A stretch of DNA of 64,000 nucleotides from Modestobacter excelsi (GTDB lineage: Bacteria; Actinomycetota; Actinomycetes; Mycobacteriales; Geodermatophilaceae): the NCBI RefSeq assembly GCF_005930495.1, contig NZ_SJEX01000018.1, positions 1 through 64,000 on the forward strand, in the 5' to 3' direction. The notes under the pieces are model-generated. The model had not been told where the DNA came from. It made no database searches and worked only from the letters and a program-made list of their open reading frames with translations. The number at the start of each line of letters is the position of its first letter. Positions within the stretch are counted from its first letter, which is position 1. The translations under genes were made by a program, and so were the position numbers. Shown in pieces: positions 9,288 through 63,833 of the stretch.

Positions 9288-9355
9288 TGGAGGACCCTCG
9301 TGCCCCCCACCACTCGCGAGCTCGCGGCGGGCCCCTGCACGAGGGCCGTTCCAGG
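9288..9355 (+). repeat. Intergenic hairpin repeat, copy R1
   Basis: This starts at the kynU stop codon as ATGGAGGACCCTCGTGC, has the core CCACTCGCGAGCTCG and closes with GCACGAGGGCCGTTCCA. The arms CCTCGTG and CACGAGG pair. It sits between convergent genes and matches copies at 10219, 22832, 33901, 55519 and 63768. The most likely role is a bidirectional transcription terminator. Confidence 0.75.
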
Positions 9356-9372
9356 ACGTCACCCTGGGTCCG

Positions 9373-10218
9373 TCAGATGTCGGTGGGGACGCCGATGGGG
9401 TTGTGCGGCGGCCAGTCGCCGGCGGCCGTGACGGCGCGGCGCACCGGCACGAGCAGCTCGGCCAGCCGGTCGCAGCCGGCCTCGCCGAGCGCGGCCCACG
9501 GGCCCTGCGCCAGCCGGTCGGTGTCCGCCTCCACGGCGGCCCGGAGCGCCAGCCCGTCGGCGGTCAGCTCGCCGTCGGCCAGCCAGCCGCGGGAGGTCAG
9601 CACGACCCCGGCGTCGGTCCACTCGTCGGTCGACCAGCCGCGCGCCTTCTGCAGCCAGTCGGCGGACGTCGTCCCGGCCGCGGCGCTGAGCACGAGCGCG
9701 GGCAGGCCGAGCAGCTCGTGCTGCATCAGCGTGGCCAGGTGCCCGTCACCGCGGTGCTCGCGCAGCGTCGTCAGCGACTGCCACAGCGCGAGGTGCGGCT
9801 GCTCGGGAACGGGCAGCGCGGAGTTCGCCGCGGCCAGCGGGCGGCCCGGGAGGTCGACCGCCTCCGCCGCCCACCGGGCCAGGGTGGCGGCCTCGACGGC
9901 AGCGGTCGAGTCGGCCCAGCCCGGCAGCGCCCGCTGCACGGCGGCGTCGACCCCGGCCAGCCGGGCGGCCAGCGCCCCGGCCGGGGACGTCGTCGACCAC
10001 ACCTCGGGCACCCGTCGCGCCACGAACGCCGGCGCGAAGGAGGCGAAGGTCGCCGTCACCACCTCCGGGCCGACGGCGCCCAGCGGAGCGGCCCGGCCGG
10101 CGAAGTAGCCGGCCCAGAAGGTGCGCAGCCCGGCGGCGGCGAAGGCGGTGCGGGCCTCGTCGGCGAAGTAGGTCAGCGCGTGGAACGGCTCACCCAGCGC
10201 CCACAGGCGCCGCGCCAC
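9373..10218 (-). CDS. SCO6745-family protein
   Basis: A 281-aa actinobacterial protein of unknown function: 'ARRLWALGEPFHALTYFADEAR', 'GYFAGRAAPLGAVGPEVVTATFASFAP', 'HLATLMQHELLGLPALVLSAAAG' and 'SRGWLADGELTADGLALRAAVEADTD'. The start was put at GTG 10218 ('VARRLWALGE'). An upstream ATG at 10284 overlaps the HNH stop (TGATG), but the 66 bp between is a copy of the hairpin repeat, so that extension is probably not native protein. It is cotranscribed with the HNH gene unless the repeat terminates transcription. Confidence 0.7.
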   Translation of the reverse strand: MARRLWALGEPFHALTYFADEARTAFAAAGLRTFWAGYFAGRAAPLGAVGPEVVTATFASFAPAFVARRVPEVWSTTSPAGALAARLAGVDAAVQRALPGWADSTAAVEAATLARWAAEAVDLPGRPLAAANSALPVPEQPHLALWQSLTTLREHRGDGHLATLMQHELLGLPALVLSAAAGTTSADWLQKARGWSTDEWTDAGVVLTSRGWLADGELTADGLALRAAVEADTDRLAQGPWAALGEAGCDRLAELLVPVRRAVTAAGDWPPHNPIGVPTDI

Positions 10219-10284
10219 GGTGTGGCCCTGCTGCAGGGACCCGGCCCGAGCCCGCGAGGGCTGGGCGGCAGGAGGGTCCTCCAT
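10219..10284 (-). repeat. Intergenic hairpin repeat, copy R2, fused to the start of the SCO6745-family gene
   Basis: On the minus strand it reads ATGGAGGACCCTCCTGCC, a core CCCTCGCGGGCTCGG, then GCAGCAGGGCC. It begins exactly at the HNH stop codon, as R1 does at the kynU stop. It is in frame with the SCO6745-family gene and adds about 22 codons to it. Confidence 0.65.
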
Positions 10285-10895
10285 CAGGCACTCACGGAGT
10301 CGGGCATGCCGAGCCACTCCCGCCACCGGGGGTCGACCGTCCGGTGCCCCAGCAACCGCCACGCCGCGCCGCTGGGGGCGCGCGGCGGGTGCGGCAGCGA
10401 CCAGCCCATCTCCGCCAGCGACCGGTCGGCCTTGGTGTGGTTGCACCGCCGGCAGGCGGCGACGACGTTGTCCCAGGTGTGCGTGCCCCCTCGGCTGCGC
10501 GGCACGACGTGGTCGATGCTGGTCGCCGAGCCGCCGCAGTAGACGCAGGTCGACCCGTCACGGGTGAACACGGCGCGGCGGGACAGCGGCACCTGGACCG
10601 GGTAGGGCACCCGCACGTAGCGGGTCAGCCGCACCACGATCGGCACGGCCAGGGTGATCCGCTCGGCGTGCACCTCGTCGTCGGTGACGTCGACGGCCTC
10701 GGCCTTGGCGGCCAGGACGAGCACGACCGCGCGGCGGCTGGAGACCACGCACAACGGCTCGTAGGTGGCGTTGAGCAGGAGCGTCGCACCGGTCATGGAC
10801 GGAGCCGGGGCAGGCGCGTGCGGAGCGAGGGAGCGGTCGTGGCGGGCGCCGGGGTGCCCCGGCGCGGACGACGACCCGAGTGCGGTGATCGACAC
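10284..10895 (-). CDS. HNH endonuclease
   Basis: A 203-aa HNH nuclease of the actinobacterial type. The N-terminal segment 'LLLNATYEPLCVVSSRRAVVLVL' is followed by 'RDGSTCVYCGGSATSIDHVVPRSRGGTHTWDNVVAACRRCNHTKADRSL'. This has two CxxC zinc pairs and the catalytic DH...N...H core. Start GTG 10895 was chosen for its strong GGAGGT Shine-Dalgarno at 10901-10906; an internal ATG at 10796 would give a protein lacking the Gly/Pro-rich N-terminal tail. The target is unknown. The stop overlaps the ATG at 10284. Confidence 0.85.
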   Translation of the reverse strand: MSITALGSSSAPGHPGARHDRSLAPHAPAPAPSMTGATLLLNATYEPLCVVSSRRAVVLVLAAKAEAVDVTDDEVHAERITLAVPIVVRLTRYVRVPYPVQVPLSRRAVFTRDGSTCVYCGGSATSIDHVVPRSRGGTHTWDNVVAACRRCNHTKADRSLAEMGWSLPHPPRAPSGAAWRLLGHRTVDPRWREWLGMPDSVSA

Positions 10896-11005
10896 GGGAC
10901 ACCTCCGAGTGCCCCGGGCCACCGACGGCTTCGACAGCCCACGGGCACGCTCATCCTGCACTGTCCCACCGTGCTGTGAGATGCCGGGCTGTCAGGGGGC
11001 CCGGC

Positions 11006-11011
11006 TACGGT
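11006..11011 (+). promoter_or_regulatory. Putative -10 box (TACGGT) of the prolyl oligopeptidase gene
   Basis: TACGGT ends 6 nt before GTG 11018, the same geometry as at the amidase, CtaJ, DUF885 and accD1 genes, implying a leaderless mRNA. Confidence 0.5.
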
Positions 11012-11017
11012 CGGCGC

Positions 11018-13117
11018 GTGCGCTACCCCGACGCCCCCCGCCTCGACCTGGTGGAGGACCTGCACGGTCACCCGGTCGCCGATCCCTACCGCTGGCTGGA
11101 GGACGACGACGACCCGCGCACCACCGCGTGGGCCGCCGGCCAGGACGAGCTGGCCACCGGCCTGCTGACCGGTCTGCCCACCCGCGCGGCCTTCGCCGAC
11201 CGCCTCACCGAGCTGGTGCACGCCGGCGCGGTCGGCATCCCGGTCCGGCGGCGGGGGCGGGCCTTCTCCACCCGGCGCGACCCCGGTCAGGAGCACGCGG
11301 TCCTGCGGGTCACCGAGCCCGACGGGACGGTCCGGGTGCTCATCGACCCGACCGCGCTCGACCCGGCCGGCACCACCACGCTCGACGCCTGGTCGCCCAG
11401 CTGGGAGGGTGACCGGCTGGCCTACCAGCTCTCGGTGGGCGGCGACGAGGAGTCCCAGCTCTTCGTGCTCGACGTCGGCACCGGCGAGGTGCTCGAGGGC
11501 CCGATCGACCGCTGCCGCTACTCCCCCGTCGCCTGGCTGCCCGGCGGCGAGGAGCTGTTCTACGTCCGCCGGCTGGCTCCCGAGCTGGTGCCCGCCGGTG
11601 AGGAGCAGTTCCACCGGCGGGTGTGGCGGCACCGGGTGGGCAGCGACCCGGACTCCGACGTCCTCGTCCACGGCGAGGGCGCCGACCCGGCCACCTACTT
11701 CGGTGCCCGCACCAGCGCCGACGGCCGCTGGCTGGTGGTTTCCGCCTCGATCGGCACAGCTCCCCGGGACGACGTCTGGCTGGCCGACCTCGCCGGTGAC
11801 GGCGCGCTGCGCGAGCTGCAGGTCGGCGTCGACGCGCAGACCACCGCCTGGGTCGCCCGCGACGGCCGGCTCTGGCTGCACACCGACCGCGACGCGCCGC
11901 GCAACCGCCTGGTGGTCGCCGACCCGGCCGACCCGGCGAGCTGGGCGCCGGCGGCCTGGCGCGAGGTGGTCCCGCAGCAGCCCGACGGCGTGCTGTCCGA
12001 CCTGGCGCTGGTCGACTCCCCGGACGGCGGCCTGCAGGTGCTCGCCGTGCACGCCGTCGACGCCACCGACCGGCTCTCGCTGTGGTCGGCCGACGGGAGC
12101 GGCCGGCTGGCCGAGGTCAGCGACCTGCACCCGGGCAGCGTCTCCGGGGTGAGCGCTCCCCCGGAGGGCGGGACGACGGCCTGGGTGGGCTTCACCGACC
12201 ACTCCACCCCGCCCTCGGTGCTGCGCTGGGACGCTGCCGACCCGACCGCGCTCACCACCTGGGAGCAGGCGCCGGTGGCCGGCCCGGTCCCGGACGTGCG
12301 GGTGGTCGAGACCCACGCGACCTCGGCGGACGGGACGCCGGTGCACCTGTTCGTGCTGTCGCAGACCGGGACGCCGGAGACGCCACGGCCGACCGTCCTG
12401 TACGGCTACGGGGGCTTCAACGTCTCGCTCACCCCGGCCTACAGCGCTCAGGCGCTGGCCTGGGTCGCCGCCGGCGGCGTGTGGGTCGTGGCCAACCTGC
12501 GCGGCGGCTCCGAGCACGGCGAGGACTGGCACCGGGCCGGCATGCGGGAGCGCAAGCAGAACGTGTTCGACGACTTCACCGCCGCGGCCGAGCACCTCAT
12601 CGCCAGCGGCTGGACGACGCCGGCGCAGCTGGCGGTGATGGGCGGCTCCAACGGCGGGCTGCTGGTGGGCGCGATGACCACCCAGCACCCCGACCTGGTC
12701 GCCGCCGTCGTGTGCAGCGCCCCGCTGCTGGACATGGTCCGGTACGAGCTGTTCGGTCTGGGCCGCACCTGGAACGACGAGTACGGCACCGCCTCGGACC
12801 CGGAGGAGCTGGGCTGGCTGCTGGGCTACTCGCCGTACCACCGGGTGGTCGAGGGCACCGCCTACCCCGCGGTGCTGTTCACGACCTTCGAGTCCGACAC
12901 CCGGGTCCATCCGCTGCACGCCCGCAAGCTCGCCGCGGCGCTGCAGCACGCCACCAGCGCGGAGGCGCCGATCGTGCTCCGACGGGAGCTGTCGGTGGGT
13001 CACGGCGCCCGCGCGGTGAGCCGCACGGTGGGTCTGGCCGCCGACCAGCTGGCCTTCCTGGCCGCCTTCACCGGACTGCACCCCGCCGGTCAGCCCTCCC
13101 CCGCGGCAAAGAGCTGA
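11018..13117 (+). CDS. Prolyl oligopeptidase-family serine peptidase (S9A)
   Basis: A 699-aa peptidase with an N-terminal beta-propeller (about residues 1-400) and a C-terminal alpha/beta-hydrolase. The catalytic Ser is in 'VMGGSNGGLLVG' (about residue 545), Asp in 'TFESDTRVHPLHARK' and His in 'SVGHGARAVSRT'. 'LYGYGGFN' and 'WVVANLRGGSEHGEDWH' are typical of S9A. These enzymes cleave short peptides after proline, or basic residues in the oligopeptidase B branch. No signal peptide is visible. Start GTG 11018 fits the leaderless promoter and the 'YPDAPRLDLVEDLHG' family N-terminus. Confidence 0.9.
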   Translation: MRYPDAPRLDLVEDLHGHPVADPYRWLEDDDDPRTTAWAAGQDELATGLLTGLPTRAAFADRLTELVHAGAVGIPVRRRGRAFSTRRDPGQEHAVLRVTEPDGTVRVLIDPTALDPAGTTTLDAWSPSWEGDRLAYQLSVGGDEESQLFVLDVGTGEVLEGPIDRCRYSPVAWLPGGEELFYVRRLAPELVPAGEEQFHRRVWRHRVGSDPDSDVLVHGEGADPATYFGARTSADGRWLVVSASIGTAPRDDVWLADLAGDGALRELQVGVDAQTTAWVARDGRLWLHTDRDAPRNRLVVADPADPASWAPAAWREVVPQQPDGVLSDLALVDSPDGGLQVLAVHAVDATDRLSLWSADGSGRLAEVSDLHPGSVSGVSAPPEGGTTAWVGFTDHSTPPSVLRWDAADPTALTTWEQAPVAGPVPDVRVVETHATSADGTPVHLFVLSQTGTPETPRPTVLYGYGGFNVSLTPAYSAQALAWVAAGGVWVVANLRGGSEHGEDWHRAGMRERKQNVFDDFTAAAEHLIASGWTTPAQLAVMGGSNGGLLVGAMTTQHPDLVAAVVCSAPLLDMVRYELFGLGRTWNDEYGTASDPEELGWLLGYSPYHRVVEGTAYPAVLFTTFESDTRVHPLHARKLAAALQHATSAEAPIVLRRELSVGHGARAVSRTVGLAADQLAFLAAFTGLHPAGQPSPAAKS

Positions 13118-13275
13118 CCGGCGGGTTCTCCGACGACCGCAACGTACCGGAACGACGACGCCCCATATCCGCCGAGATGGTCGACCGCATCGCGCCGACC
13201 TGCAACACTCACCGCCATGAAGCGGGCACGATCGGTGACCCCGATGGACGACTGCGGCGCTGATCCGGGCCGGCT

Positions 13276-14640
13276 GTGCTCACTGCCGAGCCGCGGCGGA
13301 GGGCTCCGCTGAGGCGCCCCCGCCGCGGGCGGGTGGCCGAGGCCAGCCGTCCGGCGACGTACCGGCAGGTCTTCGCCGTGGCCGAGTTCCGCCCGCTGTT
13401 CGGCTCCTACCTGCTGTCCACGATCGGCGACGAACTGGCCCGGGTGGCGCTCACCGTGCTGGTCTACCAGCGCACCGACTCGCCCCTGCTGTCGGCGGTG
13501 ACCTTCGCCATCACCTACCTGCCCTGGCTGCTCGGTGGTCCGGTGCTGGCCGCACTGGCCGACCGCTTCCCCCGCCACCGCGTGCTGGTCAGCAGCGACG
13601 TGGCCCGGGCCGTGCTCGTCGCGTTGATGGCCGTCCCGCACGCGCCGCTGGCGCTGCTCCTCGCCCTGCTGCTGGCGGTGTCGCTCTGCGCGCCGCCCTT
13701 CGAGGCGGCCCGCTCGGCGCTGATGGCCGACGTGCTGCACGGCGACCGGTACGCCGTCGCCACGTCGCTGACCGGGGTCACCGCGCAGGTGTCGCAGCTG
13801 GTCGGCTACCTGCTCGGCGGCGCGCTGCTGGTCGCGTCCTCGCCCGCGACCGCCCTGCTCGTGGACGCCGCGACCTTCGCCGTCTCCGCGGTCTGGCTGT
13901 GGCTCGGCCTGCAACGCCGGCCCGCGCCCGTGCCGGACGGCCCCGACGAGGCGACCCGGTCGATCTGGCAGGACGCCGGCAGCGGGCTGAACCTGGTCGC
14001 GTCGATCCCCCGGCTGCGCGCGATCGTCGGGCTGCTGTGGGTCAGCGCCTTCTTCGTCAACGCGCCGGAGGGGGTCGCGACCCCGCTCGCGCTGCAGCTG
14101 AACGGGGCCACCGCGGCTGCCGGGCTGCTGCTGGCGGCCAACCCGGCCGGGACGGCGATCGGCGGGCTGGTGCTGGGCCGGCTGTGCCCGCCGCAGCTGC
14201 GCGACCGGCTGCTCACCCCGCTGCTCGCGCTGTCGCTCGGTGGGGTGCTGCTGGCCGGGCTGGTGCCGCTCGTGCTGAGCCGTGGGCTCCTCGCCTACGG
14301 CCTCGTCGTCGCACTGTTCTTCGTCGCCGGCCTCGGCGGGGCGTGCAACATCCCGCTCAACGTCGCCTTCGTGCAGGCCGTCCCCAGCGCCTTCCGCGGC
14401 CGGGCGTTCGGCGTCGCGGTGGCCGGTCTGTCCGGCGCGCAGGGGCTGGGCATCGTCCTGGCCGGGGCGGGCGCCGAGCTGCTGCGGCCGACGACCGTGG
14501 TGGCGCTGGCCGGGGGCGTCGGGCTGGTGGCCGTCGTCGTCCCGCTGCTGGCGCTGCGCCGCTCCCCGCCGCCGGACGGCCCGGGAGACGTGGCTCACGT
14601 GGCCTCGGCCAGCGGCGCTGAGGGACGATCGACGTCATGA
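13276..14640 (+). CDS. MFS transporter
   Basis: A 454-aa 12-helix major facilitator protein. Homology begins at '[28 protein letters not shown]'; the A-motif-like loop '[14 protein letters not shown]' follows helix 2 and '[14 protein letters not shown]' lies in the second half. Its type resembles enterobactin-exporter-like actinobacterial MFS proteins, but the cargo cannot be inferred. The first 35 residues are Arg-rich and the start is uncertain. The upstream 158 bp contain a possible 31-codon ORF (13217-13312) without family support. The stop overlaps the next ATG (ATGA). Confidence 0.85.
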
Positions 14641-15035
14641 GCGAGACGAGCCGGTCGCTGCCCTCGGCGCGCACCTTCTACGCCGAGGTCGGCGGTGCCG
14701 AGACCTTCCGCGCCCTCGTCGCGCACTTCTACGCCGGCGTGCGGGAGGACCCCGTCCTGCGGCCGATGTACCCGGCCGACGACTGGGAGGGCGCGGAGAC
14801 CCGGCTGCGGATGTTCCTCGAGCAGTACTGGGGCGGGCCGACCACCTACTCGGAGAACCGGGGTCACCCGCGGCTGCGGATGCGGCACGCGCCCTTCGCC
14901 GTCGACGCGACGGCCCGGGACGCCTGGCTCACCCACATGCGGGCCGCGGTCGACTCCCTCGAGCTGCCCGCCGAGCAGGACGCCACGTTGTGGGGTTACC
15001 TGGAGATGGCCGCCCACAGCATGCAGAACCGCTGA
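14637..15035 (+). CDS. glbO: Group II truncated hemoglobin
   Basis: A 132-aa 2/2 globin of the trHbO type, implicated in O2/NO handling or redox protection. Key features are '[34 protein letters not shown]' (A-B-E helices), '[25 protein letters not shown]' with the proximal F8 His in 'RMRHAPF', and '[12 protein letters not shown]'. The start ATG overlaps the MFS stop (ATGA), implying translational coupling. Why a globin is coupled to an MFS exporter is unclear. Confidence 0.92.
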
Positions 15036-15098
15036 CCCCCCGGGGCCGGCTGCACGCGGGCGCAGACCTCCCGCGACCCACCGCCCCTGGAGCACCCC

Positions 15099-16682: not shown

Positions 16683-16693
16683 GCACCCCACCG

Positions 16694-18366: not shown

Positions 18367-18374
18367 GGCGGTGC

Positions 18375-18408
18375 GCTGACGCCCTCCCCGTCCGGGGAGG
18401 GCGTCAGC
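18375..18408. terminator. Perfect 15-bp hairpin between convergent genes
   Basis: GCTGACGCCCTCCCC pairs with its complement across a GTCC loop, 9 bp after the ABC ATPase stop and 19 bp before the stop of the convergent Roadblock gene. It probably serves both directions. Confidence 0.8.
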
Positions 18409-18426
18409 GCTGCGCGGGGTCCTCCG

Positions 18427-18795
18427 TCAGACCGCCACGTTGCCGGCGACCGCCCGCAGCTTGTGCCGGGCCAGCGCCAGGTTGGCGCCCACGCGGTTGA
18501 GCACGAGGTAGATGAACAGACCGGTGTTGCCCTCGCCGCGCAGCACGTTGATCAGGTGGTACTGGCTCTGCAGCGTGATCAGGACGTCCTCGATCTCGTC
18601 CTTCAGCTCGAGGTCGGAGATCGTGCGCAGCTTGGCGCGGACCACGTTGGAGTTCCCGGCGGCGGCGACGTTCAGGTCGAAGCCGGGGCTGCCGCCGGCC
18701 GCGAGGGCCATGCCGCTGTCGATGTCCACGATCGCGGCGCCGGTGGCGCCCTCGATCGCGAGCAGGTCGGCGATGACGTTGTCGAGCTGTGCCAC
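18427..18795 (-). CDS. Roadblock/LC7 domain protein
   Basis: A 122-aa single-domain Roadblock/LC7 protein: 'LDNVIADLLAIEGATGAAIVDIDSGMALA', 'NVVRAKLRTISDLELKDEIEDVLITLQSQYHLINVL' and 'LFIYLVLNRVGANLALARHKLRAV'. This fold dimerises and often regulates small Ras-like GTPases (MglB) or sits in actinobacterial conservon operons with a kinase, a DUF742 protein and a GTPase; none of those is nearby. GTG 18795 was chosen for its AGGAG box. The same frame stays open to 19107 with a Pro-rich stretch that I regard as non-coding. Confidence 0.75.
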   Translation of the reverse strand: MAQLDNVIADLLAIEGATGAAIVDIDSGMALAAGGSPGFDLNVAAAGNSNVVRAKLRTISDLELKDEIEDVLITLQSQYHLINVLRGEGNTGLFIYLVLNRVGANLALARHKLRAVAGNVAV

Positions 18796-22781: not shown

Positions 22782-22831
22782 GACGCCGACGGCCGGCCGG
22801 CGCAACTGCGCCGACCTGCCGTGGTGACGAG

Positions 22832-22896
22832 CTGGAACGGCCCCCTCGCAGGACCCCGGCACGAGCTCGCGAGTGTTGGGGGGCGAGGGGGTCCTC
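22832..22896 (-). repeat. Intergenic hairpin repeat, copy R3
   Basis: On the minus strand it begins directly after the EttA TAG as GAGGACCCCCTCGC, contains CACTCGCGAGCTCG and ends GCGAGGGGGCCGTTCCAG. The outer arms pair (CCCCCTCGC with GCGAGGGGG). It lies between convergent genes. Confidence 0.75.
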
Positions 22897-24567
<1,671 letters not shown>

Positions 24568-31593: not shown

Positions 31594-33900
31594 ATGAGCC
31601 ACCCTGTCCCCGTGACCATCCCCGCCCCCGAGTCGTCCGGCGCCTCCGTGCCCACCGGCGCTGCCGGGCAGCGGCTGCGTGCAGCCGACGTGCTGCTCGC
31701 CGACCGCGGTCAGCTGTTCCGCGCCCTGTTCCTCGCCGCGCCCATCGCCAAGGCGGTGGTGTCCCCCGACGGGCACCTCCTCGTGGCGAACCGGGCCATG
31801 TGCGAGCTCACCGGCCGCACCTCCGGCGCGCTGGTCGGCCGGCACCTGGACCTGCTGACCCACCCGGACGACGTGCCCGTCGGTGACCGCGCGACCGAGC
31901 ACGTGCCCGGCACCCCGCTGCTCGACCCGCAGCTCGAGGTCGTCGGTGAGCGCCGGCTGCGGCGGGCCGACGGCGAGAGCATCTGGGTGCACCAGTCCCA
32001 GGAGCTGGTCCACCGCAGCAACGGCGAGCCGCAGTTCGTGGTGGTCACGATGGTCGACGTCACCGACCGCCGGCGCGTCGAGGAGGACCTGGTCCGCCGC
32101 GCCTACACCGACGCCCTGACCGGGCTGCCCAACCGCCGCGCGCTGACCGAGCGGCTGCAGCGCGCCCTCGCCGTCTCCCGCCGCCGCGGCACCTCGGTCG
32201 GCCTGCTCCACCTGGACCTGGACCGCTTCACCGCGGTCAACGACTCCCTCGGCCACGAGGGCGGTGACCAGCTGCTGTGCCAGGTCGCCGACCGGCTGCG
32301 CTGGAGCACCCGGGTCGAGGACACCGCGGTCCGCTTCGGCGCCGACGAGTTCCTCGTGCTGGCCGAGGAGGTCGAGGACGTCGAGGCGCTGCGCACGCTC
32401 GCCGACCGCCTGCTCAGCGTCCTGGACGAGCCGTTCCAGGTGCTCGACCGGGAGATCGTCCTGTCGGCCAGCGTCGGCATGACGCTCGGCTCGGACATCG
32501 CCCCGGAGGCGCTGCTCCGCCAGGCGCACAGCGCCCTCGCCCGGGCCAAGGCCAGCGGTGGTCGCGGCCGCGTCGAGGTGCACGACGGCGCGGTCGGTGA
32601 GGGCTACGTCGACCAGCTCCAGCTGGAGACCGACCTGCGGCACGCGCTCGAGGCCGGTGAGCTGCGGCTGTTCTACCAACCGATCGTGGCGCTGTCCGAC
32701 GAGCACCTGCTCGGCTACGAGGCCCTCATCCGCTGGCAGCACCCCACCCGGGGGCTGCTGCCGCCCGGTGCGTTCCTGTCCGCGGCCGAGGACAACCGGC
32801 TCACCTCCCGGCTGGGCGCCTGGGTGCTGCACCAGGCCTGCTGGGACGCCGCCGGCTGGGACGCCGACCTCCGCGTGCACGTCAACATCTCCGCCCGGCA
32901 CCTGGCCGAGCCCGGCTTCAGCGAGCTCGTCGCCGACGCCCTGGCCGAGTCCGGGCTGGCCCCGGAGCGGCTGGAGCTGGAGATCACCGAGTCGACGGCG
33001 CTGTTCGCCGCCGACGCGACGCTGCACGCCGTGGACACGGTCACCGAGACCGGCGTGACGCTCGCCCTGGACGACTTCGGCACCGGCTACTCGGCGATCA
33101 CCGCGCTGCACCGGCTGCCCATCCACACGCTCAAGATCGACCGGTCGTTCGTCGCCGACGTCGTCGCCGAGCCCGCCACCGCCGCCCTGGTCCAGGGCCT
33201 GCTCCAGCTGGGGCAGGGCATGGGCCTGCAGGTCATCGCGGAGGGCATCGAGGACGGCGAGCAGGCCCGGTGGCTGCGCGAGCACGGCTGCTCGATGGCC
33301 CAGGGCTACGCCTTCGGCCGCCCGGCTCCCCTGCCGGCGCGGGAGCTGGAGGAGCTGCCCGACCTCGCGGACGCCGACCTGTCGGCCGGGGCCGGCGTGG
33401 ACGCCGGCGCGCAGCTGGTCCCGCCGACCGAGCTGCACGACCCGACCGAGGACGAGTGGGGCCCCGAGGCGGACACCGGCCCGAGCCTCCGCTCGGCCGC
33501 CGTCCCCCAGCTGGACGCCTTCGTCCTGCCGGCCACCGGCGTGCTCGCCGCGCCGCCGGCGGGGACCGACGAGCTGCCCGCAGCCGAGGCCGAGGTCACG
33601 GACGTGCCCGTCGAGCCGGCGGTGGACGGGGCAGCGGACGTCGTTCCGGAGCCCGGTTTCGACCCCGGGGTCTTCCGGCCCTCCCGGGCCTTCCTCGAGC
33701 TGCGCGAGCTGCTGGCAGCCAACGGGGCCGCGGACATCGCCGGCGTCCCGGAGCCGCGGGAACCCGTCGCGTTCGGCGACCTGCGGTCGCTGACCGACGA
33801 CCCGACCGACTTCTCCGGGCTGCGGCCCTGGCTGGAGTCCTTCCAGCAGCGGCTCGGCCCGCGCACCGGCGACGTGCCGCAGGTCGGCGACCGGGCCTGA
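31594..33900 (+). CDS. PAS-GGDEF-EAL protein with a degenerate GADEF motif
   Basis: A 768-aa c-di-GMP turnover protein. Residues about 40-165 form a PAS sensor ('FRALFLAAPIAKAVVSPDGHLLVANRAMCELTG'), 170-330 a GGDEF domain and 345-590 an EAL domain. The cyclase motif is 'RFGADEF' (Gly to Ala at the second position), so cyclase activity is doubtful. EAL residues look intact: 'YEALIRW', 'ITESTALF', 'DDFGTGYS', 'KIDRSF', 'EGIEDGEQ'. A 170-residue acidic tail follows. No membrane helices. It is probably a phosphodiesterase, with the GADEF domain perhaps binding GTP. Confidence 0.85.
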   Translation: MSHPVPVTIPAPESSGASVPTGAAGQRLRAADVLLADRGQLFRALFLAAPIAKAVVSPDGHLLVANRAMCELTGRTSGALVGRHLDLLTHPDDVPVGDRATEHVPGTPLLDPQLEVVGERRLRRADGESIWVHQSQELVHRSNGEPQFVVVTMVDVTDRRRVEEDLVRRAYTDALTGLPNRRALTERLQRALAVSRRRGTSVGLLHLDLDRFTAVNDSLGHEGGDQLLCQVADRLRWSTRVEDTAVRFGADEFLVLAEEVEDVEALRTLADRLLSVLDEPFQVLDREIVLSASVGMTLGSDIAPEALLRQAHSALARAKASGGRGRVEVHDGAVGEGYVDQLQLETDLRHALEAGELRLFYQPIVALSDEHLLGYEALIRWQHPTRGLLPPGAFLSAAEDNRLTSRLGAWVLHQACWDAAGWDADLRVHVNISARHLAEPGFSELVADALAESGLAPERLELEITESTALFAADATLHAVDTVTETGVTLALDDFGTGYSAITALHRLPIHTLKIDRSFVADVVAEPATAALVQGLLQLGQGMGLQVIAEGIEDGEQARWLREHGCSMAQGYAFGRPAPLPARELEELPDLADADLSAGAGVDAGAQLVPPTELHDPTEDEWGPEADTGPSLRSAAVPQLDAFVLPATGVLAAPPAGTDELPAAEAEVTDVPVEPAVDGAADVVPEPGFDPGVFRPSRAFLELRELLAANGAADIAGVPEPREPVAFGDLRSLTDDPTDFSGLRPWLESFQQRLGPRTGDVPQVGDRA

Positions 33901-33952
33901 GGACCCCGTCCTCCCCACCCCTGACAAGCTCGGGACGGGGCCGGACGGGGTC
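33901..33952 (+). repeat. Intergenic hairpin repeat, divergent copy R6
   Basis: It starts right after the EAL-protein TGA. GGACCCCGTCC pairs perfectly with GGACGGGGTCC 30 bp on. It shares the AGGACCCC start and CCCCACCCCTGAC spacing with the other copies but has lost the CTCGCGAGC core. It lies between convergent genes. Confidence 0.6.
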
Positions 33953-33959
33953 CCTCCCG

Positions 33960-40627: not shown

Positions 40628-40659
40628 CCCCGGGCCATGTCGCCAACATGGCCCCGGGG
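40628..40659 (+). repeat. ATGT-loop-ACAT palindrome copy with extended GC stem
   Basis: CCCCGGGCCATGT, a CGCCA loop, then ACATGGCCCCGGGG; the arms pair with a single bulge. It is 8 bp after the flavin reductase stop and preceded by AAGGACCCC. It is probably a terminator related to the copies at 2203 and 61452. Confidence 0.65.
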
Positions 40660-40683
40660 AACGCGGGCGACATGTGCCGGGGT

Positions 40684-55164: not shown

Positions 55165-55518
55165 GTGACCATCGCCGACGTGACGTGGATGGACGACTAC
55201 CGGGCTGCTGCCGTGGAGGCCACGCCGGTCACCTACGGGACCGACGTGCTGGGCCTGGCCACGGTGTTCGACGCCGGCTTCGCCGGCATGGAGGCCGAGG
55301 AGCAGGGCTGGCAGGAGCAGGCGCTGTGCGCCGAGACCGACCCCGAGGCCTTCTTCCCCGAGAAGGGCGGCTCGACCCGCGAGGCGAAGAAGATCTGCAC
55401 CGGCTGCCAGGTCCGCACCGAGTGCCTGGAGTACGCGCTGGCCAACGACGAGCGCTTCGGCATCTGGGGCGGCCTGTCCGAGCGTGAGCGCCGCCGGCTC
55501 CGTCGCCGCGCCAGCTGA
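55165..55518 (+). CDS. whiB: WhiB-family iron-sulfur transcriptional regulator (WhiB2-like)
   Basis: A 117-aa Wbl protein. The four cluster ligands are Cys55 ('EQALCAETDPEAFFPEKGG'), Cys78 and Cys81 ('KKICTGCQVR') and Cys87 ('TECLEYAL'), followed by the 'GIWGGLSERERRRL' turn and a basic DNA-contacting tail. The acidic N-terminal extension and the EKGGS insert match WhiB2/WhmD, which controls cell division and septation in actinobacteria. GTG 55165 has AGGGGGA upstream. A hairpin repeat follows the stop. Confidence 0.93.
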   Translation: MTIADVTWMDDYRAAAVEATPVTYGTDVLGLATVFDAGFAGMEAEEQGWQEQALCAETDPEAFFPEKGGSTREAKKICTGCQVRTECLEYALANDERFGIWGGLSERERRRLRRRAS

Positions 55519-55592
55519 CAAAGGACCCCCTTGCCCCCCACCACTCGCGAGCTCGCGGCGGGGCCCTGCAAGGGGGCCGTTCCAGCAGGTCG
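55519..55592 (+). repeat. Intergenic hairpin repeat, copy R4
   Basis: It begins one base after the whiB TGA: AAAGGACCCCCTTGC, core CCACTCGCGAGCTCGCGG, then GCAAGGGGGCCGTTCCAG. The arms CCCCCTTGC and GCAAGGGGG pair perfectly. Unlike most copies it lies between two genes on the same strand. Confidence 0.75.
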
Positions 55593-55612
55593 CCCAGGGG
55601 TAGGAAGGGCTC

Positions 55613-57448: not shown

Positions 57449-57451
57449 GCC

Positions 57452-58606: not shown

Positions 58607-58608
58607 GT

Positions 58609-60600
58609 CTACTCCTCCCCGCCGGGCGCCGGTGGGGTCACCACGGCCACCCGCTCGTCCAGCCGGACCTGGTGGCCGGCCGTCACCGGGAGCTCGGTGA
58701 CCGTCCCCGCGACCGGGGCGGTCAGCACGTGCTCCATCTTCATCGCCTCGACGACGAGCAGCGGGGTCCCCGCTGCCACCTCGTCGCCGAGGGACACCCG
58801 CACCACGGTCACCGTTCCCGGCATCGGGGCGGTCACCGTGCCGTCGGACCCGGCAGCGGCGTCCAGGGGCGCTAGCCGCTCGTGCTCACGCAGCGCCGCG
58901 ACGTGGCCGTCGACGGCCAGCCAGACGGTGCCCGCGGCGTGCACCGCGGTGACGTGGGTGGTCACGTCGTCCAGGGTCACGGCGAGCAGGTCGTCGTCCC
59001 GGCGGACCCGGGCGGCCATCGGGGCGCCGTCCGCGACCTGGACCTCGGCCGCAGCGGCCCGGCCGCGCACCCGGACGGTCACCGGCTCTCCGCCGGTCGC
59101 CTGCAGCCGCCGGACGGTCCAGGCCGGCTCCCCCAGCCGCCAGCCGGAGGTGTCGTCCCACGGGTCGGCGGCCCGGGCCGGCTCGGCCTCGAGCAGCAGG
59201 GCCAGCGCCGCGGCCGCGTAGACGTGCGGCGGGGGCGGGTCGGCGCGGGTCAGCGCCTCACCCCGCCGCTCGATCAGCCCGGTGTCCAGCCGGCCCGCGA
59301 CGACGTCGGGGTCGCTCAGCAGGTCGCGCAGGAACGTGGTGTTGGTGGCCACGCCGAGGACGGCGGTGTCGCCGAGGGCGGAGACCAGCCGCGCCCGGGC
59401 GGTCTCCCGGTCCGGCCCCCAGGCGATGACCTTGGCCAGCATCGGGTCGTAGTCGGTGCCGACGACCCCGCCCACCCGCAGCGAGCTGTCGACCCGGATC
59501 CCCGGGCCGGACGGCTCGAGCAGCCCGACGACGTCCCCGGCCTGCGGCAGGAACCCGCGGACCGGGTCCTCGGCGTAGACCCGGGCCTCGACGGCGTGCC
59601 CGTCCAGGACGACGTCGCTCTGCCCGATCGGCAGCCGCTCCCCCGCCGCGACCCGGACCTGCAGCTCCACCAGGTCCAGCCCGGTGACGCACTCGGTGAC
59701 CGGGTGCTCGACCTGCAGCCGGGTGTTCATCTCCAGGAAGAAGAAGTCGCTCGGGTTGCCGGCGTCGACGATGAACTCCACCGTGCCCGCGCCGGTGTAG
59801 CCGACCGCCCGGGCCGCCTCGACCGCCGCGCCGCCCATCCGGGCCCGCATGCCGGTGGTCAGCAGCGGCGAGGGCGCCTCCTCGATGACCTTCTGGTGCC
59901 GGCGCTGCAGGCTGCACTCGCGTTCCCCGAGGTGGACGACGGTGCCGTGCGTGTCGCCGAAGACCTGCACCTCGATGTGCCGGGAGTTCCCGAGGTAGCG
60001 CTCGACCAGGAGGGTGTCGTCGCCGAAGGAGCCGCGGGCCTCCCGGCGGGCACCGGCGATCTGCTCGGCGAGCTCGTCGGGGCCGCGCACCACCCGCATG
60101 CCCTTGCCGCCGCCGCCCGCGCTGGGCTTGAGCAGGACCGGGAAGCCGACCTCGATCGCGGCCTTCGCGACCTCGTCGTCGTCCATGCCGGGTTCGGTCC
60201 GCCCGGGGACGACGGGCACGCCGGCCGCCGCGACGGTCTGCTTGGCCCGGATCTTGTCGCCCATCGCCTCGATCGCGTCGACCGGGGGCCCGATGAACAC
60301 GATGCCGGCGGCGGCGCAGGCCCGGGCGAAGTCGACGTTCTCGGAGAGGAAGCCGTAGCCGGGGTGCACGGCCTGCGCGCCGGTGCGCCGGGCGGCGTCC
60401 AGCACCCGCTCGATGGACAGGTAGCTCTGCGCGGCCGGGGCCGGGCCGATCGGCACGGCGACGTCGGCCAGCCGGGTGTGCAGCGCGCCGGTGTCGGCGT
60501 CGCTGTGCACGGCCACCGAGCGGATGCCCATCCGCCGCAGGGTGCGGATCACCCGGACGGCGATCTCGCCACGGTTGGCGACCAGGACGGTCTCGAACAC
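58609..60600 (-). CDS. accA1: Acyl-CoA carboxylase biotin-carboxylase/BCCP subunit (AccA1-like)
   Basis: A 663-aa alpha subunit carboxylating its own biotin. The biotin carboxylase domain is at about 1-445 ('FETVLVANRGEIAVRVIRT', 'KPSAGGGGKGMRVV', 'FFFLEMNTRLQVEHPVTECVTGLDL'). A linker follows, then the biotinyl domain at the C-terminus with Lys in 'VVEAMKMEHVL'. It partners AccD1 as 3-methylcrotonyl-CoA carboxylase in leucine degradation (inferred from similarity and neighbours). GTG 60600 gives the canonical 'FETVLVANRGE' start; the frame continues upstream only as shadow. A biotin uptake operon lies at 19 kb. Confidence 0.92.
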   Translation of the reverse strand: MFETVLVANRGEIAVRVIRTLRRMGIRSVAVHSDADTGALHTRLADVAVPIGPAPAAQSYLSIERVLDAARRTGAQAVHPGYGFLSENVDFARACAAAGIVFIGPPVDAIEAMGDKIRAKQTVAAAGVPVVPGRTEPGMDDDEVAKAAIEVGFPVLLKPSAGGGGKGMRVVRGPDELAEQIAGARREARGSFGDDTLLVERYLGNSRHIEVQVFGDTHGTVVHLGERECSLQRRHQKVIEEAPSPLLTTGMRARMGGAAVEAARAVGYTGAGTVEFIVDAGNPSDFFFLEMNTRLQVEHPVTECVTGLDLVELQVRVAAGERLPIGQSDVVLDGHAVEARVYAEDPVRGFLPQAGDVVGLLEPSGPGIRVDSSLRVGGVVGTDYDPMLAKVIAWGPDRETARARLVSALGDTAVLGVATNTTFLRDLLSDPDVVAGRLDTGLIERRGEALTRADPPPPHVYAAAALALLLEAEPARAADPWDDTSGWRLGEPAWTVRRLQATGGEPVTVRVRGRAAAAEVQVADGAPMAARVRRDDDLLAVTLDDVTTHVTAVHAAGTVWLAVDGHVAALREHERLAPLDAAAGSDGTVTAPMPGTVTVVRVSLGDEVAAGTPLLVVEAMKMEHVLTAPVAGTVTELPVTAGHQVRLDERVAVVTPPAPGGEE

Positions 60601-60638
60601 CTCAGGCCCCACCTTCCGCGCGGGAAGCGGACCGGCCG

Positions 60639-60821
60639 TCAGGCCTGGCGGGTGCTCTTCGCGAGGACGAGGTCGGCCTTGCCGACCTTGACCAGCCGGC
60701 GCTTCTTGACGGTGTACCCGGGCGGCAGGTTGCCCTCGGCGAGCGCGCGCAGCGGGCACCGGCCGCAGCGCGGCTTGTCCTGGCAGCACTTCTTCTTGGG
60801 CATCTTGGCCGACTTCCCCAC
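60639..60821 (-). CDS. Small Cys-rich conserved protein, 60 aa
   Basis: It has 'MPKKKCCQDKPRCGRCPL' with four Cys (CC-x4-C-x2-C) followed by 'PPGYTVKKRRLVKVGKADLVLAK'. The Cys set could hold zinc or an Fe-S cluster. GTG 60821 sits 6 nt after TAACCT, the leaderless pattern; ATG 60803 is an alternative. It lies between accA1 and the divergent ferritin gene. I recall similar short proteins in actinobacteria without known function. Confidence 0.65.
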   Translation of the reverse strand: MGKSAKMPKKKCCQDKPRCGRCPLRALAEGNLPPGYTVKKRRLVKVGKADLVLAKSTRQA

Positions 60822-60919
60822 GCAGTGAGGTTAGCCATGCCTTCCCTACCCGTCGAGGCGTCGGGCGTGTCGCCCGCTACGGTCAGCAGGACGTCGTCCC
60901 ACCGCACCGAGGAGCAGCC

Positions 60920-61444
60920 ATGGCCGCCGACGCCTTCGTCGAGAAGCTGAACGAGCAGATCGGCCACGAGTTCGCCGCGCACCACCAGTACATCGCCATC
61001 GCCGTGTACTTCGACGAGCTGACCATGCCGCAGATGGCGCAGCTGTTCTTCGACCAGGCGCTCGAGGAGCGCAACCACGCGATGATGATGGTGCGCTACC
61101 TGCTCGACGCCGACGCGCCGGTGGCCATCCCCGGCGTCGTCGGTCCGGTCACCTCGTTCGAGGACGTCGTGGGCCCGGTCTCGCTCGCCCTGGAGCAGGA
61201 GAAGCGGGTCACCCAGCAGATCAACGAGCTCATCGGCATCGCGCGGCGCGAGAACGACTTCTCCTCCGACCAGTTCATGCAGTGGTTCATCAAGGAGCAG
61301 GTCGAGGAGGTCAGCAAGATGAGCGACCTGCTGGCCGTCGTCCGCCGGTCCGCCCACGACGTCGAGCAGATCGAGGACTACGTCAAGCGGGAGACCGCCC
61401 CCGAGGGCGTCGACCCGACCGCGCCGCGCATCGCCGGCGTCTGA
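60920..61444 (+). CDS. Ferritin (non-heme, BfrB/Ftn type)
   Basis: A 174-aa ferritin storing iron in a 24-mer shell. Ferroxidase-centre residues are visible: Glu in 'NEQIGHEFAAHHQYIAIAVYFD', Glu-Glu and His in 'FDQALEERNHAMMMV', then Glu in 'LALEQEKRVTQQINEL' and Gln in 'WFIKEQVEEVSKM'. ATG 60920 has GAGGAGC. TACGGT at 60878 could be its -10, giving a leader of about 30 nt. It is inserted between accA1 and accD1 on the opposite strand. Confidence 0.93.
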   Translation: MAADAFVEKLNEQIGHEFAAHHQYIAIAVYFDELTMPQMAQLFFDQALEERNHAMMMVRYLLDADAPVAIPGVVGPVTSFEDVVGPVSLALEQEKRVTQQINELIGIARRENDFSSDQFMQWFIKEQVEEVSKMSDLLAVVRRSAHDVEQIEDYVKRETAPEGVDPTAPRIAGV

Positions 61445-61451
61445 TGCCTGA

Positions 61452-61475
61452 GGGCCGTGTTGGCCGACATGGCCC
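61452..61475. repeat. ATGTTGGCCAACAT-type palindrome copy
   Basis: GGGCCGTGT, TGGCCG, ACATGGCCC between the convergent ferritin and accD1 stops. The arms pair with one G-T. It is a probable bidirectional terminator of the same family as 2203 and 40628. Confidence 0.65.
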
Positions 61476-61487
61476 TCCGGGACGACG

Positions 61488-63101
61488 TCACATCCGGAAG
61501 ACGCCATAGCCGACCTCCTCCAACGGGGCGTTGGCGCACGCGGACAGCGCGAGCCCGAGCACGGTCCGGGTCTGGGCGGGGTCGATGACCCCGTCGTCCC
61601 AGAGCCGGGCCGTGGCGTGGAACGGGTGACCCTGGTCCTCGTACTGGTCGCGGATCGGCGCCTTGAACGCCTCCTCGTCCTCCGCCGACCACTCCTGCCC
61701 GCGGGCCTCGAACCCGTCGCGGCGGACGGTGGCCAGCACGCTGGCCGCCTGCTCGCCGCCCATCACGGAGATGCGCGAGTTGGGCCAGGTGAACAGGAAC
61801 CGCGGCGAGTACGCCCGCCCGCACATCGAGTAGTTGCCGGCGCCGAACGAGCCGCCGATGACGACGGTCAGCTTGGGCACCCGGGCGGTGGCGACCGCGG
61901 TGACCATCTTGGCGCCGTGCTTGGCGATGCCGCCGGCCTCGTAGTCGCGGCCGACCATGAACCCGGAGATGTTCTGCAGGAACAGCAGCGGGATCTTCCG
62001 GCGGTCGCACAGCTCGATGAAGTGCGCGCCCTTGAGCGCGGACTCGCTGAAGAGCACGCCGTTGTTGGCGATGATCCCCACCGGGTGGCCGTGCAGCCGG
62101 GCGAAGCCGGTGACCAGCGTCTGCCCGTAGAGCGGCTTGAACTCGGCGAACCGGCTGCCGTCGACCAGCCGGGCGATGACCTCGCGGACGTCGTAGGGCG
62201 TGCGGGTGTCGACCGGGACGACGTCGTACAGGCTCTCCGCCGGGTACACCGGCTCCTCGACCGGCTCGACGTCCCACGGGCGGTGCTCGCGCGGGCCGAG
62301 GGTGCCGACGATCTGCCGGACGATCTGCAGCGCGTGCGCGTCGTCCTCGGCCAGGTGGTCGGTCACCCCGCTGACCCGGGAGTGCAGCTCACCGCCACCG
62401 AGGTCCTCGGCGGTGACCTCCTCCCCCGTCGCGGCCTTCACCAGCGGCGGGCCGCCGAGGAAGATCGTCCCCTGGTTGCGGACGATGACCGCCTCGTCGC
62501 TCATCGCCGGCACGTAGGCACCGCCGGCGGTGCACGAGCCCAGGACGGCGGCGATCTGCGCGATCCCGGCCTTGGACAGGTTGGCCTGGTTGAAGAAGAT
62601 CCGGCCGAAGTGGTCGCGGTCGGGGAAGACCTCGTCCTGGAGCGGCAGGAACGCACCGCCGGAGTCGACCAGGTAGACGCAGGGCAGCCGGTTCTGGAGG
62701 GCCACCTCCTGGGCGCGGAGGTGCTTCTTCACCGTCATCGGGTAGTAGGTGCCGCCCTTGACGGTGGCGTCGTTGGCGACGACGACGACCTCGCGCCCGG
62801 ACACCCGGCCGATGCCGGTGATGATGCCGGCGGCCGGCGCGTCGCCGTCGTAGAGACCGTGCGCGGCCAGCGGGGACAGCTCGAGGAACGGGCTGCCCGG
62901 GTCGAGCAGGGCGTCGACCCGCTCCCGGGGCAGCAGCTTGCCGCGCGCGGCGTGCCGCTCACGGGCCCGCTCACCGCCGCCGAGCGCCACCCGGGCCAGC
63001 TCGTCGGCCAGCCCGGTGGCCAGCGCAGCGTGGTGCGCGGCATTGCGCGCGGCCGCCGCCGGGTCCGCCGGCGGGGCACTGGAGAGCACCGGTGCGTCCA
63101 C
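61488..63101 (-). CDS. accD1: Acyl-CoA carboxylase carboxyltransferase subunit (AccD1-like, methylcrotonyl-CoA carboxylase beta)
   Basis: A 537-aa crotonase-fold carboxyltransferase. '[36 protein letters not shown]', '[28 protein letters not shown]', '[21 protein letters not shown]', '[17 protein letters not shown]' and '[28 protein letters not shown]' match MCC-beta rather than propionyl-CoA carboxylases. GTG 63101 lies 6 nt after TAACCT at the edge of a large operator palindrome, so it is leaderless and under TetR control. It works with AccA1. Confidence 0.92.
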
Positions 63102-63106
63102 GGGCA

Positions 63107-63158
63107 GAGGTTAACCACCGTTCACACTGTCGGTCCAGTGTGAACCGCGGTTAACCTC
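63107..63158. promoter_or_regulatory. 52-bp operator palindrome with mirror-image leaderless promoters
   Basis: GAGGTTAACC-ACC-GTTCACACTG (63107-63129) is repeated inverted as CAGTGTGAAC-CGC-GGTTAACCTC (63136-63158), 21 of 23 positions matching, around a 6-bp centre. Each half is itself a TetR-like site (GTTAACC-N3-GTTCAC). The outer edges form TAACCT -10 boxes 6 nt from GTG 63101 (minus) and GTG 63164 (plus). Confidence 0.85.
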
Positions 63159-63163
63159 TTCGC

Positions 63164-63763
63164 GTGACCTCCCAGCCGGACAGCGCGCTGCACAGCGACG
63201 CGGCGAACCCCTCGCGGCGGGAGCAGATCCTGCGCGCGGCGGCCCAGCTGTTCGCCGAGCGCGGGTCCCGCGCGGTGGGGGTGGACGACGTCGGCGCGGC
63301 CGTCGGCGTCACCGGCCCGGCGATCTACCGGCACTTCGCGAGCAAGGACGCGATGCTCGCGGAGATGCTGCTGCGGATCAGCGAGCGGCTGCTGGCCGGC
63401 GGCACCGAGCGGATCGCCGCGGCCGGCGGCTCACCCGCCGCCCAGCTGCGTGCGCTGGTCGACTTCCACGTCGACTTCGCGCTGGACAACCCCGCGCTGA
63501 TCACCGTGCAGGACCGGGACCTGGGGGCGTTGAGCGACCCCGACGCCCGCCGGGTGCGCCAGCTGCAGCGCAGCTACGTCGAGGAGTGGGTCGCCGTCCT
63601 CACCCGGCTGCACCCGGACGCGTCGACGGCCGCCTGCCGGGCGCGCGCGCACGCGGTGTTCGGCCTGATCAACTCCACGCCGCACAGCGCCGGCCGGCTG
63701 GCCCGCCCCGCGATGGCCGCCCTGCTCGCCGACATGGCAGTCGCCGCCGCGACTGCCAGGTGA
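63164..63763 (+). CDS. TetR-family regulator of the accD1 leucine-catabolic genes
   Basis: A 199-aa TetR protein: 'RREQILRAAAQLFAERGSRAVGVDDVGAAVGVTGPAIYRHFASKDAMLAEMLLRI' is the HTH, with a helical ligand domain after it. It is divergent from accD1 across a 62-bp gap filled by the large palindrome, so it probably represses both genes and responds to an acyl-CoA. GTG 63164 is 6 nt from its -10 box. Confidence 0.9.
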   Translation: MTSQPDSALHSDAANPSRREQILRAAAQLFAERGSRAVGVDDVGAAVGVTGPAIYRHFASKDAMLAEMLLRISERLLAGGTERIAAAGGSPAAQLRALVDFHVDFALDNPALITVQDRDLGALSDPDARRVRQLQRSYVEEWVAVLTRLHPDASTAACRARAHAVFGLINSTPHSAGRLARPAMAALLADMAVAAATAR

Positions 63764-63767
63764 CGGG

Positions 63768-63833
63768 CTGGAACGGCCCCGTCCAGAGGCTCGCCCCGAG
63801 CGTGCGAGGGGGTGAGGAGGACGGGGTCCTCCC
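63768..63833 (-). repeat. Intergenic hairpin repeat, copy R5
   Basis: On the minus strand it starts just after the stop of the last gene: GGGAGGACCCCGTCC, a diverged core CCCTCGCACGCTCGGGG, then GGACGGGGCCGTTCCAG. The arms CCCCGTCC and GGACGGGG pair. It lies between convergent genes. Confidence 0.7.

What the first reader, a model, noticed from the sequence alone, without database searches (positions are those of the whole stretch)
9288..63833. Dispersed intergenic hairpin family with compensatory stem changes
Six elements (9288, 10219, 22832, 33901, 55519, 63768) begin within a few bases of a stop codon with GGAGGACCC or AGGACCCC; five end in a GGGCC block, and four of those run on into GGGCCGTTCCA. 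A central CACTCGCGAGCTCG is identical in three. The outer arms differ yet stay complementary: CCTCGTG/CACGAGG, CCCCCTCGC/GCGAGGGGG, CCCCCTTGC/GCAAGGGGG, CCCCGTCC/GGACGGGG. Such covariation implies selection on the RNA or DNA fold. Four of six lie between convergent genes. A lineage-specific terminator is the simplest reading; the conserved core suggests something also binds it.
Basis: seen in the sequence. Interest (0 to 1): 0.8.

Follow-up and report, generated by a model that had tools for sequence, protein, structure and literature searches.

The report
REP-like hairpin repeat abutting stop codons
A small hairpin-forming DNA repeat, present in a few hundred copies per genome in one family of soil and rock bacteria, sits almost exactly against gene stop codons and comes and goes between sister species, so it looks like a spreading element rather than the genes' own terminator.

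Summary
A covariance model found all six (two of them held out) and 150 in the genome (a cap); a 464 kb sample not picked by score gives about 60 per Mb, roughly 300 per genome. It was found only in Geodermatophilaceae (host genus probably Modestobacter). Stem covariation is very strong. Of 156 copies, 134 start 0-12 nt (130 of them 0-6 nt) after the stop codon of a called sense gene; in 11 of 66 convergent cases the 3' end also lands exactly on the neighbour's stop codon. Copies are patchy between related species: 39 of 46 compared copies have at least one unfilled ortholog. Some lie between the stop and a native hairpin, nest inside one another, or leave tandem 3'-half fossils. Convergent gene pairs are not favoured. 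G.U pairs are no commoner than A.C mismatches, so no RNA-strand constraint is visible. "Lineage-specific" is therefore right, and "terminator" is at most a secondary role. Best reading: a new REP-like palindrome family (no GTAG tag, no RAYT transposase found) that spreads by an unknown route and is kept, or targeted, at stop codons. Termination or 3'-end protection is plausible but unshown.

The parts
9288..9363 (+). Element E1, directly after TGA 9285-9287 of gene 8037..9287(+); full element with tail CCAGGACGTCACC
   Evidence: R1 95.4 bits, E=2.5e-18 (copy used in the model); stop-adjacent; unfilled in relatives G008 and G014
10209..10283 (-). Element E2, after the stop (10284-10286) of gene 10284..10796(-); diverged copy without the GTTCCAG tail
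   Evidence: held-out copy, R1 53.1 bits, E=2.5e-9; G014 empty, G008 degenerate by eye
22821..22896 (-). Element E3, after TAG 22897-22899 of the ABC-F (EttA-like, named from recall) gene 22897..24567(-)
   Evidence: R1 92.2 bits (copy used in the model); filled with different but paired arms in G006, G007, G008 and G018
22796..22815 (.). Residual hairpin between E3 and the convergent gene, at the place of the terminator-like hairpin that several E3-less orthologs have (by eye)
   Evidence: sequence; ortholog comparison
33901..33953 (+). Element E4, directly after TGA 33898-33900 of gene 31594..33900(+); diverged copy, 3' end GGGGTCC
   Evidence: held-out copy, R1 37 bits, E=7e-6; G007 and G014 orthologs lack it on this strand and have another hairpin
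55519..55596 (+). Element E5, after TGA 55516-55518 of a WhiB-like gene (named from recall) 55165..55518(+)
   Evidence: R1 92.3 bits (copy used in the model); G007 ortholog reads TGACGAGGGGGTAGG at 97% flank identity without it
63757..63833 (-). Element E6, after TGA 63836-63834 (minus) of the gene running in from the right; its tail TCA, read on the plus strand as TGA 63761-63763, is the stop codon of the convergent gene 63164..63763(+)
   Evidence: R1 78.3 bits (copy used in the model); stop-to-stop fit listed
18412..18426 (-). Probable 5'-half fossil: after the stop of gene 18427..18795(-), CGGAGGACCCCGCGC ahead of an ordinary hairpin (18373-18410)
   Evidence: listing (window minus, 45578) and hairpin list; by eye

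Best explanation
A Geodermatophilaceae-specific REP-like element of about 65-80 bp: a bulged double hairpin with variable but complementary arms, a constant loop TCGC-NN-GCTC in most copies, a constant 5' end NGAAGGACC and, in a subset, a 3' tail GTTCCAGCACGTCACC. Shown: high copy number, sense orientation, one end (sometimes both) fitted against stop codons of any type, presence/absence turnover, nesting and fossil 3' halves. Inferred: copies spread by transposition or by ectopic recombination/template switching through the DNA hairpin, driven by an enzyme not identified; copies persist at stop codons because elsewhere they harm genes or have no use; once there, the transcribed hairpin may end or protect the mRNA 3' end next to the gene's older terminator.
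For: Copy number: 29 exact-pattern copies vs 0 control; all 150 candidates scored were hits; 28 in 464 kb not picked by score. Location: 134 of 156 copies follow a called sense gene's stop within 12 nt, about 5% expected; stops TGA/TAG/TAA 101/23/10 vs 998/123/20 in all called genes, so the TGA sequence is not the target; in convergent gaps 58 of 64 copies sit at gene stops and the other 6 have no stop triplet near, although 210 free CTGA were available against 357 at stops. Junction CTGA-N-GAAGGACC with N uniform, unlike plain stops (p=4e-17). The other end: convergent stop exactly 11 nt past GGGGCC in 11 of 66 convergent cases. Turnover: 39 of 46 compared copies have an unfilled ortholog with both flanks matched; pairs 66 filled, 69 unfilled, 19 unclear. 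Insertion ahead of a kept hairpin. Nested copies L126, L118, L295 and tandem 3' halves. G.U 24 vs A.C 33 in stems.
Against: No transposase or recombinase was found; the RAYT family is absent from 20 of 20 genus genomes searched, other enzyme families were not searched. Filled/unfilled length difference is not constant (median 39 nt, range -316 to 109), and no target duplication was noticed, so a textbook clean insertion is not shown; stop-to-stop replacement or gene conversion fits as well. Unfilled sites include remnants below the model threshold, so some are losses. At E3 the element is at the same place in most congeners compared, as a functional part would be. At two loci the native hairpin is gone or halved (E4; L213:18951), which a replacement terminator would also give. 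Of 156 copies, 12 have no stop triplet within 12 nt and 10 follow one that is not a called gene stop; in co-directional gaps 5 of 80 are of the latter kind, in divergent ones 3 of 4. They may be uncalled genes or free sites.
Confidence: 0.62

Rival explanations
1. A lineage-specific intrinsic terminator family: each copy is its gene's transcription terminator, with a conserved loop bound by a termination factor.
For: Sense orientation directly after stop codons; strong GC-rich hairpin; in E4 and, less clearly, L213:18951 it stands where related species have another hairpin; 3' hairpins without a U-tract occur at other gene ends of this window too.
Against: Placed ahead of a retained terminator-like hairpin (E3; the pair L215:16765 and 16863 flanking one shared hairpin); a hairpin of -30 kcal/mol or stronger follows the element in 6 of 17 cases, not obviously fewer than after plain stops (lowest quarter of 242 at -31 or below); no convergent preference; in a short co-directional gap (E5); nested and tandem copies; only 20 of 366 gene ends of the own sample were scored as carrying one.
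Confidence: 0.2
2. A structure-specific DNA recombination site, attC-like: a folded single strand with conserved extrahelical bases and free arms is cut at the loop dinucleotide NN or in the tail, and 3' halves behave as tiny cassettes.
For: Conserved bulged A and G, variable arms, constant loop with free NN (in one search part of the constancy is due to the search pattern); tandem 3'-half units joined as TCACC-N(1-2)-GCTC in about ten loci; no G.U excess.
Against: No integrase identified or searched for; no attC core GTTRRRY (recalled); the arrays may come from plain tandem duplication and deletion.
Confidence: 0.08
3. A 3'-UTR RNA element bound by a protein or small RNA, spread by selection.
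For: Constant loop and bulges, sense strand, narrow range of distances to the stop codon.
Against: No wobble-pair excess on the sense strand; patchy between related species; no Rfam match.
Confidence: 0.07

Closest known systems
GTAG-tagged REP elements with RAYT transposases
   Same: Many dispersed intergenic palindromes close to ORF 3' ends (most convergent ones less than 20 bp away in the two species diagrammed), between convergent or co-directional genes; their termini often provide the TAG stop codon (PMC3733652, section 15); uneven, lineage-bound families.
   Different: 65-80 bp bulged double hairpin instead of 20-40 bp; no unpaired GTAG end; no Y1 transposase in 20 of 20 genus genomes; two ends that can fit stop codons. 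Dimer arrangement was not counted.
CGTC-tagged REP elements
   Same: No dedicated transposase known; a CGTC occurs in the 3' tail of part of our copies.
   Different: CGTC REPs have 8-9 bp stems, 4-5 nt loops and a CCA-like tail; here the stem has about 21 pairs, the loop is about 10-12 nt, and CGTC lies in a 3' tail, only in a subset.
Intrinsic transcription terminators
   Same: GC-rich hairpin downstream of a stop codon on the sense strand.
   Different: Family sequence shared by hundreds of loci, no U-tract, in places ahead of another hairpin, nested and turning over.
MIRU repeats of mycobacteria (recalled only; not found)
   Same: Actinobacterial dispersed repeats recalled as sitting at stop-codon (TGA) overlaps.
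   Different: MIRUs are recalled as tandem direct repeats inside operons, not palindromes at gene ends.
Integron attC sites (recalled)
   Same: Folded hairpin with variable arms and conserved extrahelical bases right after a stop codon.
   Different: No core site; flanking genes in the window compared here are collinear chromosomal genes, not cassettes.

Membership tests
REP (GTAG) | Unpaired GTAG tetranucleotide at one end | tested here: not met
   5' end is N-GAAGGACC, 3' tail GTTCCAGCACGTCACC in a subset
REP (GTAG) | RAYT (Y1, PF01797) transposase in the genome | tested here: not met
   0 of 20 genus genomes including the own one; control genomes ring in 5 of 14
REP (general) | High-copy palindromes, extragenic, near ORF 3' ends | tested here: met
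   3 of 156 copies lie inside a called gene
REP (CGTC) | CGTC end tag, 8-9 bp stem, 4-5 nt loop, CCA tail | tested here: not met
   stem and loop sizes differ from the published definition
MITE | Constant-length insertion with target-site duplication | tested here: inconclusive
   filled/unfilled pairs differ by a variable length, median 39 nt; no duplication noticed by eye
MITE | Parent transposase with the same ends | tested here: inconclusive
   no long version with separated halves seen in 1.76 Mb; whole genomes not scanned for it
Intrinsic terminator | RNA 3' ends map to the hairpin | not testable with these tools
   no transcript data
Intrinsic terminator | U-tract after the stem | tested here: not met
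   GTTCCAG or unrelated sequence follows the stem
Rfam families | Match to a curated covariance model | tested here: not met
   only a tRNA in the window at gathering scores; 0 matches up to E=1 in five loci
attC-like recombination site | Integron core site and integrase | not tested
   no integrase search run

The most novel reading that the evidence does not exclude
A mobile DNA hairpin whose placement is specified by translation stop codons as such (TGA, TAG or TAA) and not by a target sequence, with both ends able to fit a stop codon, so that between convergent genes it can replace the whole gap from stop to stop and each new arrival displaces the 5' half of the old hairpin; to my knowledge (recall, and the searches named in the report) it would be the first repeat shown to be coupled to translation termination or to 3'-end structure.
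Probability: 0.2. Interest if true: 0.8.

Novelty: new variant of a known kind. Interest (0 to 1): 0.55.

Why it matters
It adds a REP-like family in Actinobacteria, without the known tags and without the known transposase in the genomes searched, whose copies meet stop codons almost to the base. It makes two open questions testable: what spreads REP-like palindromes that lack a RAYT, and why such elements collect at gene ends (targeting or selection). It also warns that strong covariation among genomic copies of a hairpin need not mean RNA selection.

Tried and rejected
Chance hairpins: rejected. Rfam family: none. Phage or plasmid vehicle: no match for E5 in either collection. RAYT-driven REP: PF01797 absent from the 20 genus genomes searched. 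Plain TGA target: rejected because TAG and TAA stops are enriched and free CTGA sites in convergent gaps are unused. Convergent-gene preference: rejected. Search for an autonomous version with separated halves: none seen in 1.76 Mb. A structure typed for one search was partly one column off on the 3' side; the correct one is that. One search found no useful synteny and was dropped. Literature: listings showed no description of this family; the library holds open papers only. Papers seen: PMC3733652 (abstract, sections 6 and 15, first part of section 17, passages), PMC2817692 and PMC2229807 (passages), PMC13323073 (passages, not used); others only as listings. MIRU and attC features, and the gene names EttA and WhiB, are from recall. 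Genes were called by a script of my own, not by a published caller.

Rows dropped: L013 and L024 (odd lengths) before alignment A2; five hits above E=0.01 of the 33; one of the 21 hits (the antisense of another); 7 of 53 hits without a usable upstream flank or ortholog. In the set of 156, 82 of the 108 copies from named species were fetched by the two-ended pattern (no stop codon in it); the other 74 were not chosen by pattern. In one search orthologous copies in different genomes are counted apart.
Full report
Observation. The six elements are present as described. The consensus, sense strand, is stop codon - N - GAAGGACCCC-arm-CC-CCCACCxC-TCGCNNGCTC-GxGGCGGG-xCCCT-arm-GGGGCCGTTC, in part of the copies followed by CAGCACGTCACC. 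A pattern of the two ends has 29 exact copies in the genome and none in the reversed control. From 27 of these (two of odd length dropped) RNAalifold draws an outer helix with a bulged A and G and an inner helix, 23 pairs, 9 with changes on both sides. The ends of these 27 are constant by choice of pattern.

Extent. The model R1 finds the six elements well above background; E2 and E4, not used for the model, score 53 and 37 bits. It finds 150 matches in the genome, the cap. In 464 kb of own sequence not chosen by score (400 kb of three large contigs plus the window) there are 28 at E below 0.01, 60 per Mb, so about 300 per genome. All 23 genus genomes and 9 of 12 others of the family have matches; 0 of 24 from other families of the order. 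A class-wide draw with a second model gave 0 of 196 other genomes, with only the best 23 candidates per genome scored. Two handles of the genus match Modestobacter contigs by length, so the window's genus is taken to be Modestobacter. The three family genomes without a match are one each of g6, g8 and g10; g8 and g10 are the most distant by the E3 gene's protein identity (80-82% against 89% or more), g6 was not in that draw.

Covariation. On 61 Modestobacter copies not chosen by pattern, 15 of 21 pairs change on both sides, 94.5% of cells pair, covariation score 0.347 against 0.102 in shuffles. The nine highest mutual-information column pairs are all stem pairs; in a structure-blind alignment eight of the first nine are. 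Outer arms take 61 forms in 136 copies. Yet one-sided states are rare and G.U (24) is not commoner than A.C (33, p=0.29; five outermost pairs and one frequently A.C pair left out; with that pair A.C leads further). Mutation should supply both equally and RNA pairing should keep G.U (general knowledge), so there is no sign of constraint on the sense RNA; DNA-level pairing or joint replacement of both arms fits better. Numbers are small, and in one of the two sets 82 of 108 copies were fetched by pattern.

Position. Of 156 distinct copies, 134 begin 0-12 nt (130 of them 0-6 nt, counted to GGACC) after the stop of a called sense gene, 144 after any stop triplet, 12 after none; about 5% is expected for a random intergenic position. 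The commonest junction is C-TGA-N-GAAGGACC (73 of 74 with that spacing are TGA); with TAG it is mostly TAGAAGGACC or TAGGAGGACC (14 of 21 with that spacing are TAG). The base N is uniform (21 A, 19 G, 17 C, 16 T), whereas plain TGA stops are followed by C or G in 86% (p=4e-17), and C precedes TGA in 67 of 73 against 61%, so N and perhaps the C belong to the arriving sequence. In convergent gaps 58 of 64 copies are at gene stops; the other 6 have no stop triplet within 12 nt, so none is at one of the 210 free CTGA sites. In co-directional gaps 71 of 80 are at called stops, 5 at a stop triplet that is not a called gene end, 4 at none; in divergent gaps 3 and 1 of 4. The 3' tail repeats the rule on the other strand: in 11 of 66 convergent cases the neighbour's stop (TCA in 9, TTA in 2, as read on the sense strand) lies exactly 11 nt past GGGGCC, E6 among them; 10 of the 11 have a stop at both ends. 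TCA is at that place in 29 of 81 co-directional copies too, where no stop is needed.

Turnover. At the E3 gene the 30 orthologs looked at end at the same residue; by eye 9 have a full element, 5 a remnant or collapsed copy and 16 none, and a terminator-like hairpin further down occurs in several with and several without it. At E5 the related G007, 97% identical in the flank, has TGACGAGGGGGTAGG and no element. In one pair of convergent genes each gene has its own element and both flank a shared hairpin of which the relative G008 has a similar version. At L213:18951 the element seems to have taken the place of the 5' half of a hairpin-like stretch (by eye). By script, 39 of 46 compared copies have at least one unfilled ortholog with both flanks matched; pairs were 66 filled, 69 unfilled, 19 unclear; the length difference varies (median 39 nt). 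For the own genome it is 14 of 15, and 8 of 15 have a filled ortholog. Unfilled includes remnants and orthologous copies are counted apart.

Nesting and fossils. L126, L295 and L118 hold a copy inside a copy. About ten loci have an element followed by one or more 3' halves joined as TCACC-N(1-2)-GCTC, the later ones mostly without a matching 5' arm; L004 has a 24-bp tandem version. The joint resembles the loop TCGC-NN-GCTC. One reading is that a newcomer at the stop codon displaces the old 5' half.

Function. No convergent preference (7 of 132 vs 13 of 234; 20 of the 28 copies of the sample could be assigned there). After the element a hairpin of -30 kcal/mol or stronger follows in 6 of 17 cases; median -23.4 against -26.1 after 242 plain stops, so loss of native terminators is neither shown nor excluded. 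Termination or 3' protection is inferred from place and fold only.

Comparison. REPs of the GTAG kind also sit close to ORF 3' ends and often supply the stop codon (PMC3733652 section 15); that paper takes the frequency of G-T pairs as a sign of RNA function, which is not seen here. The tag, size and transposase tests fail, so this works like a REP but is not filed as a GTAG or CGTC REP.

Mechanism and confidence. Shown: structure, numbers, lineage, stop-codon fit, turnover, nesting. Inferred: spread through the DNA hairpin by an unknown enzyme or by template switching; retention at stop codons by selection or targeting; a 3'-end role.

Noticed in passing
L271, L272, L277, L263, L273, L285, L286, L288, L289, L293, L294 (just after gene stops): Other genera of the family carry different palindromes that recur at the same gene ends, e.g. 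GTGCTCTGCCC..GGGCAGAGCAC, GTGCACTTCCGCGGAAGTGCAC, TAGGAAGCGATCCCCACG; they may be further families of the same habit.
   Followed up: no
G000 lines (site G008 L337:1554) and (site G014 9055): A palindrome GATCAGGT(C/G)ACCTGATC recurs at element-free gene ends of the own genome.
   Followed up: no
window 2156-2219 and 40636-40674: Two hairpins both hold a CCAACA-CGG/CCAACATGG-like stretch, possibly another small repeat; weak.
   Followed up: no
L222 (G074), L297 (G065), L208:1871-1947, L331:18513-18592: A second loop type (ACGCGCTCCGCG-like) on the same arms and bulges, in genus g4 and in some Modestobacter copies; R1 may undercount g4 for this reason.
   Followed up: partly
alignment A5 columns 21, 48, 52: Three columns change together (C-G-C to T-A-T), i.e. 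the base 3' of the inner helix follows the pair 21-48; may mark a subfamily or alternative pairing.
   Followed up: no
L004: Short tandem array of a 24-bp unit GGGGCCGTTCCAGCACGTCACCCC made of the element's 3' end.
   Followed up: partly
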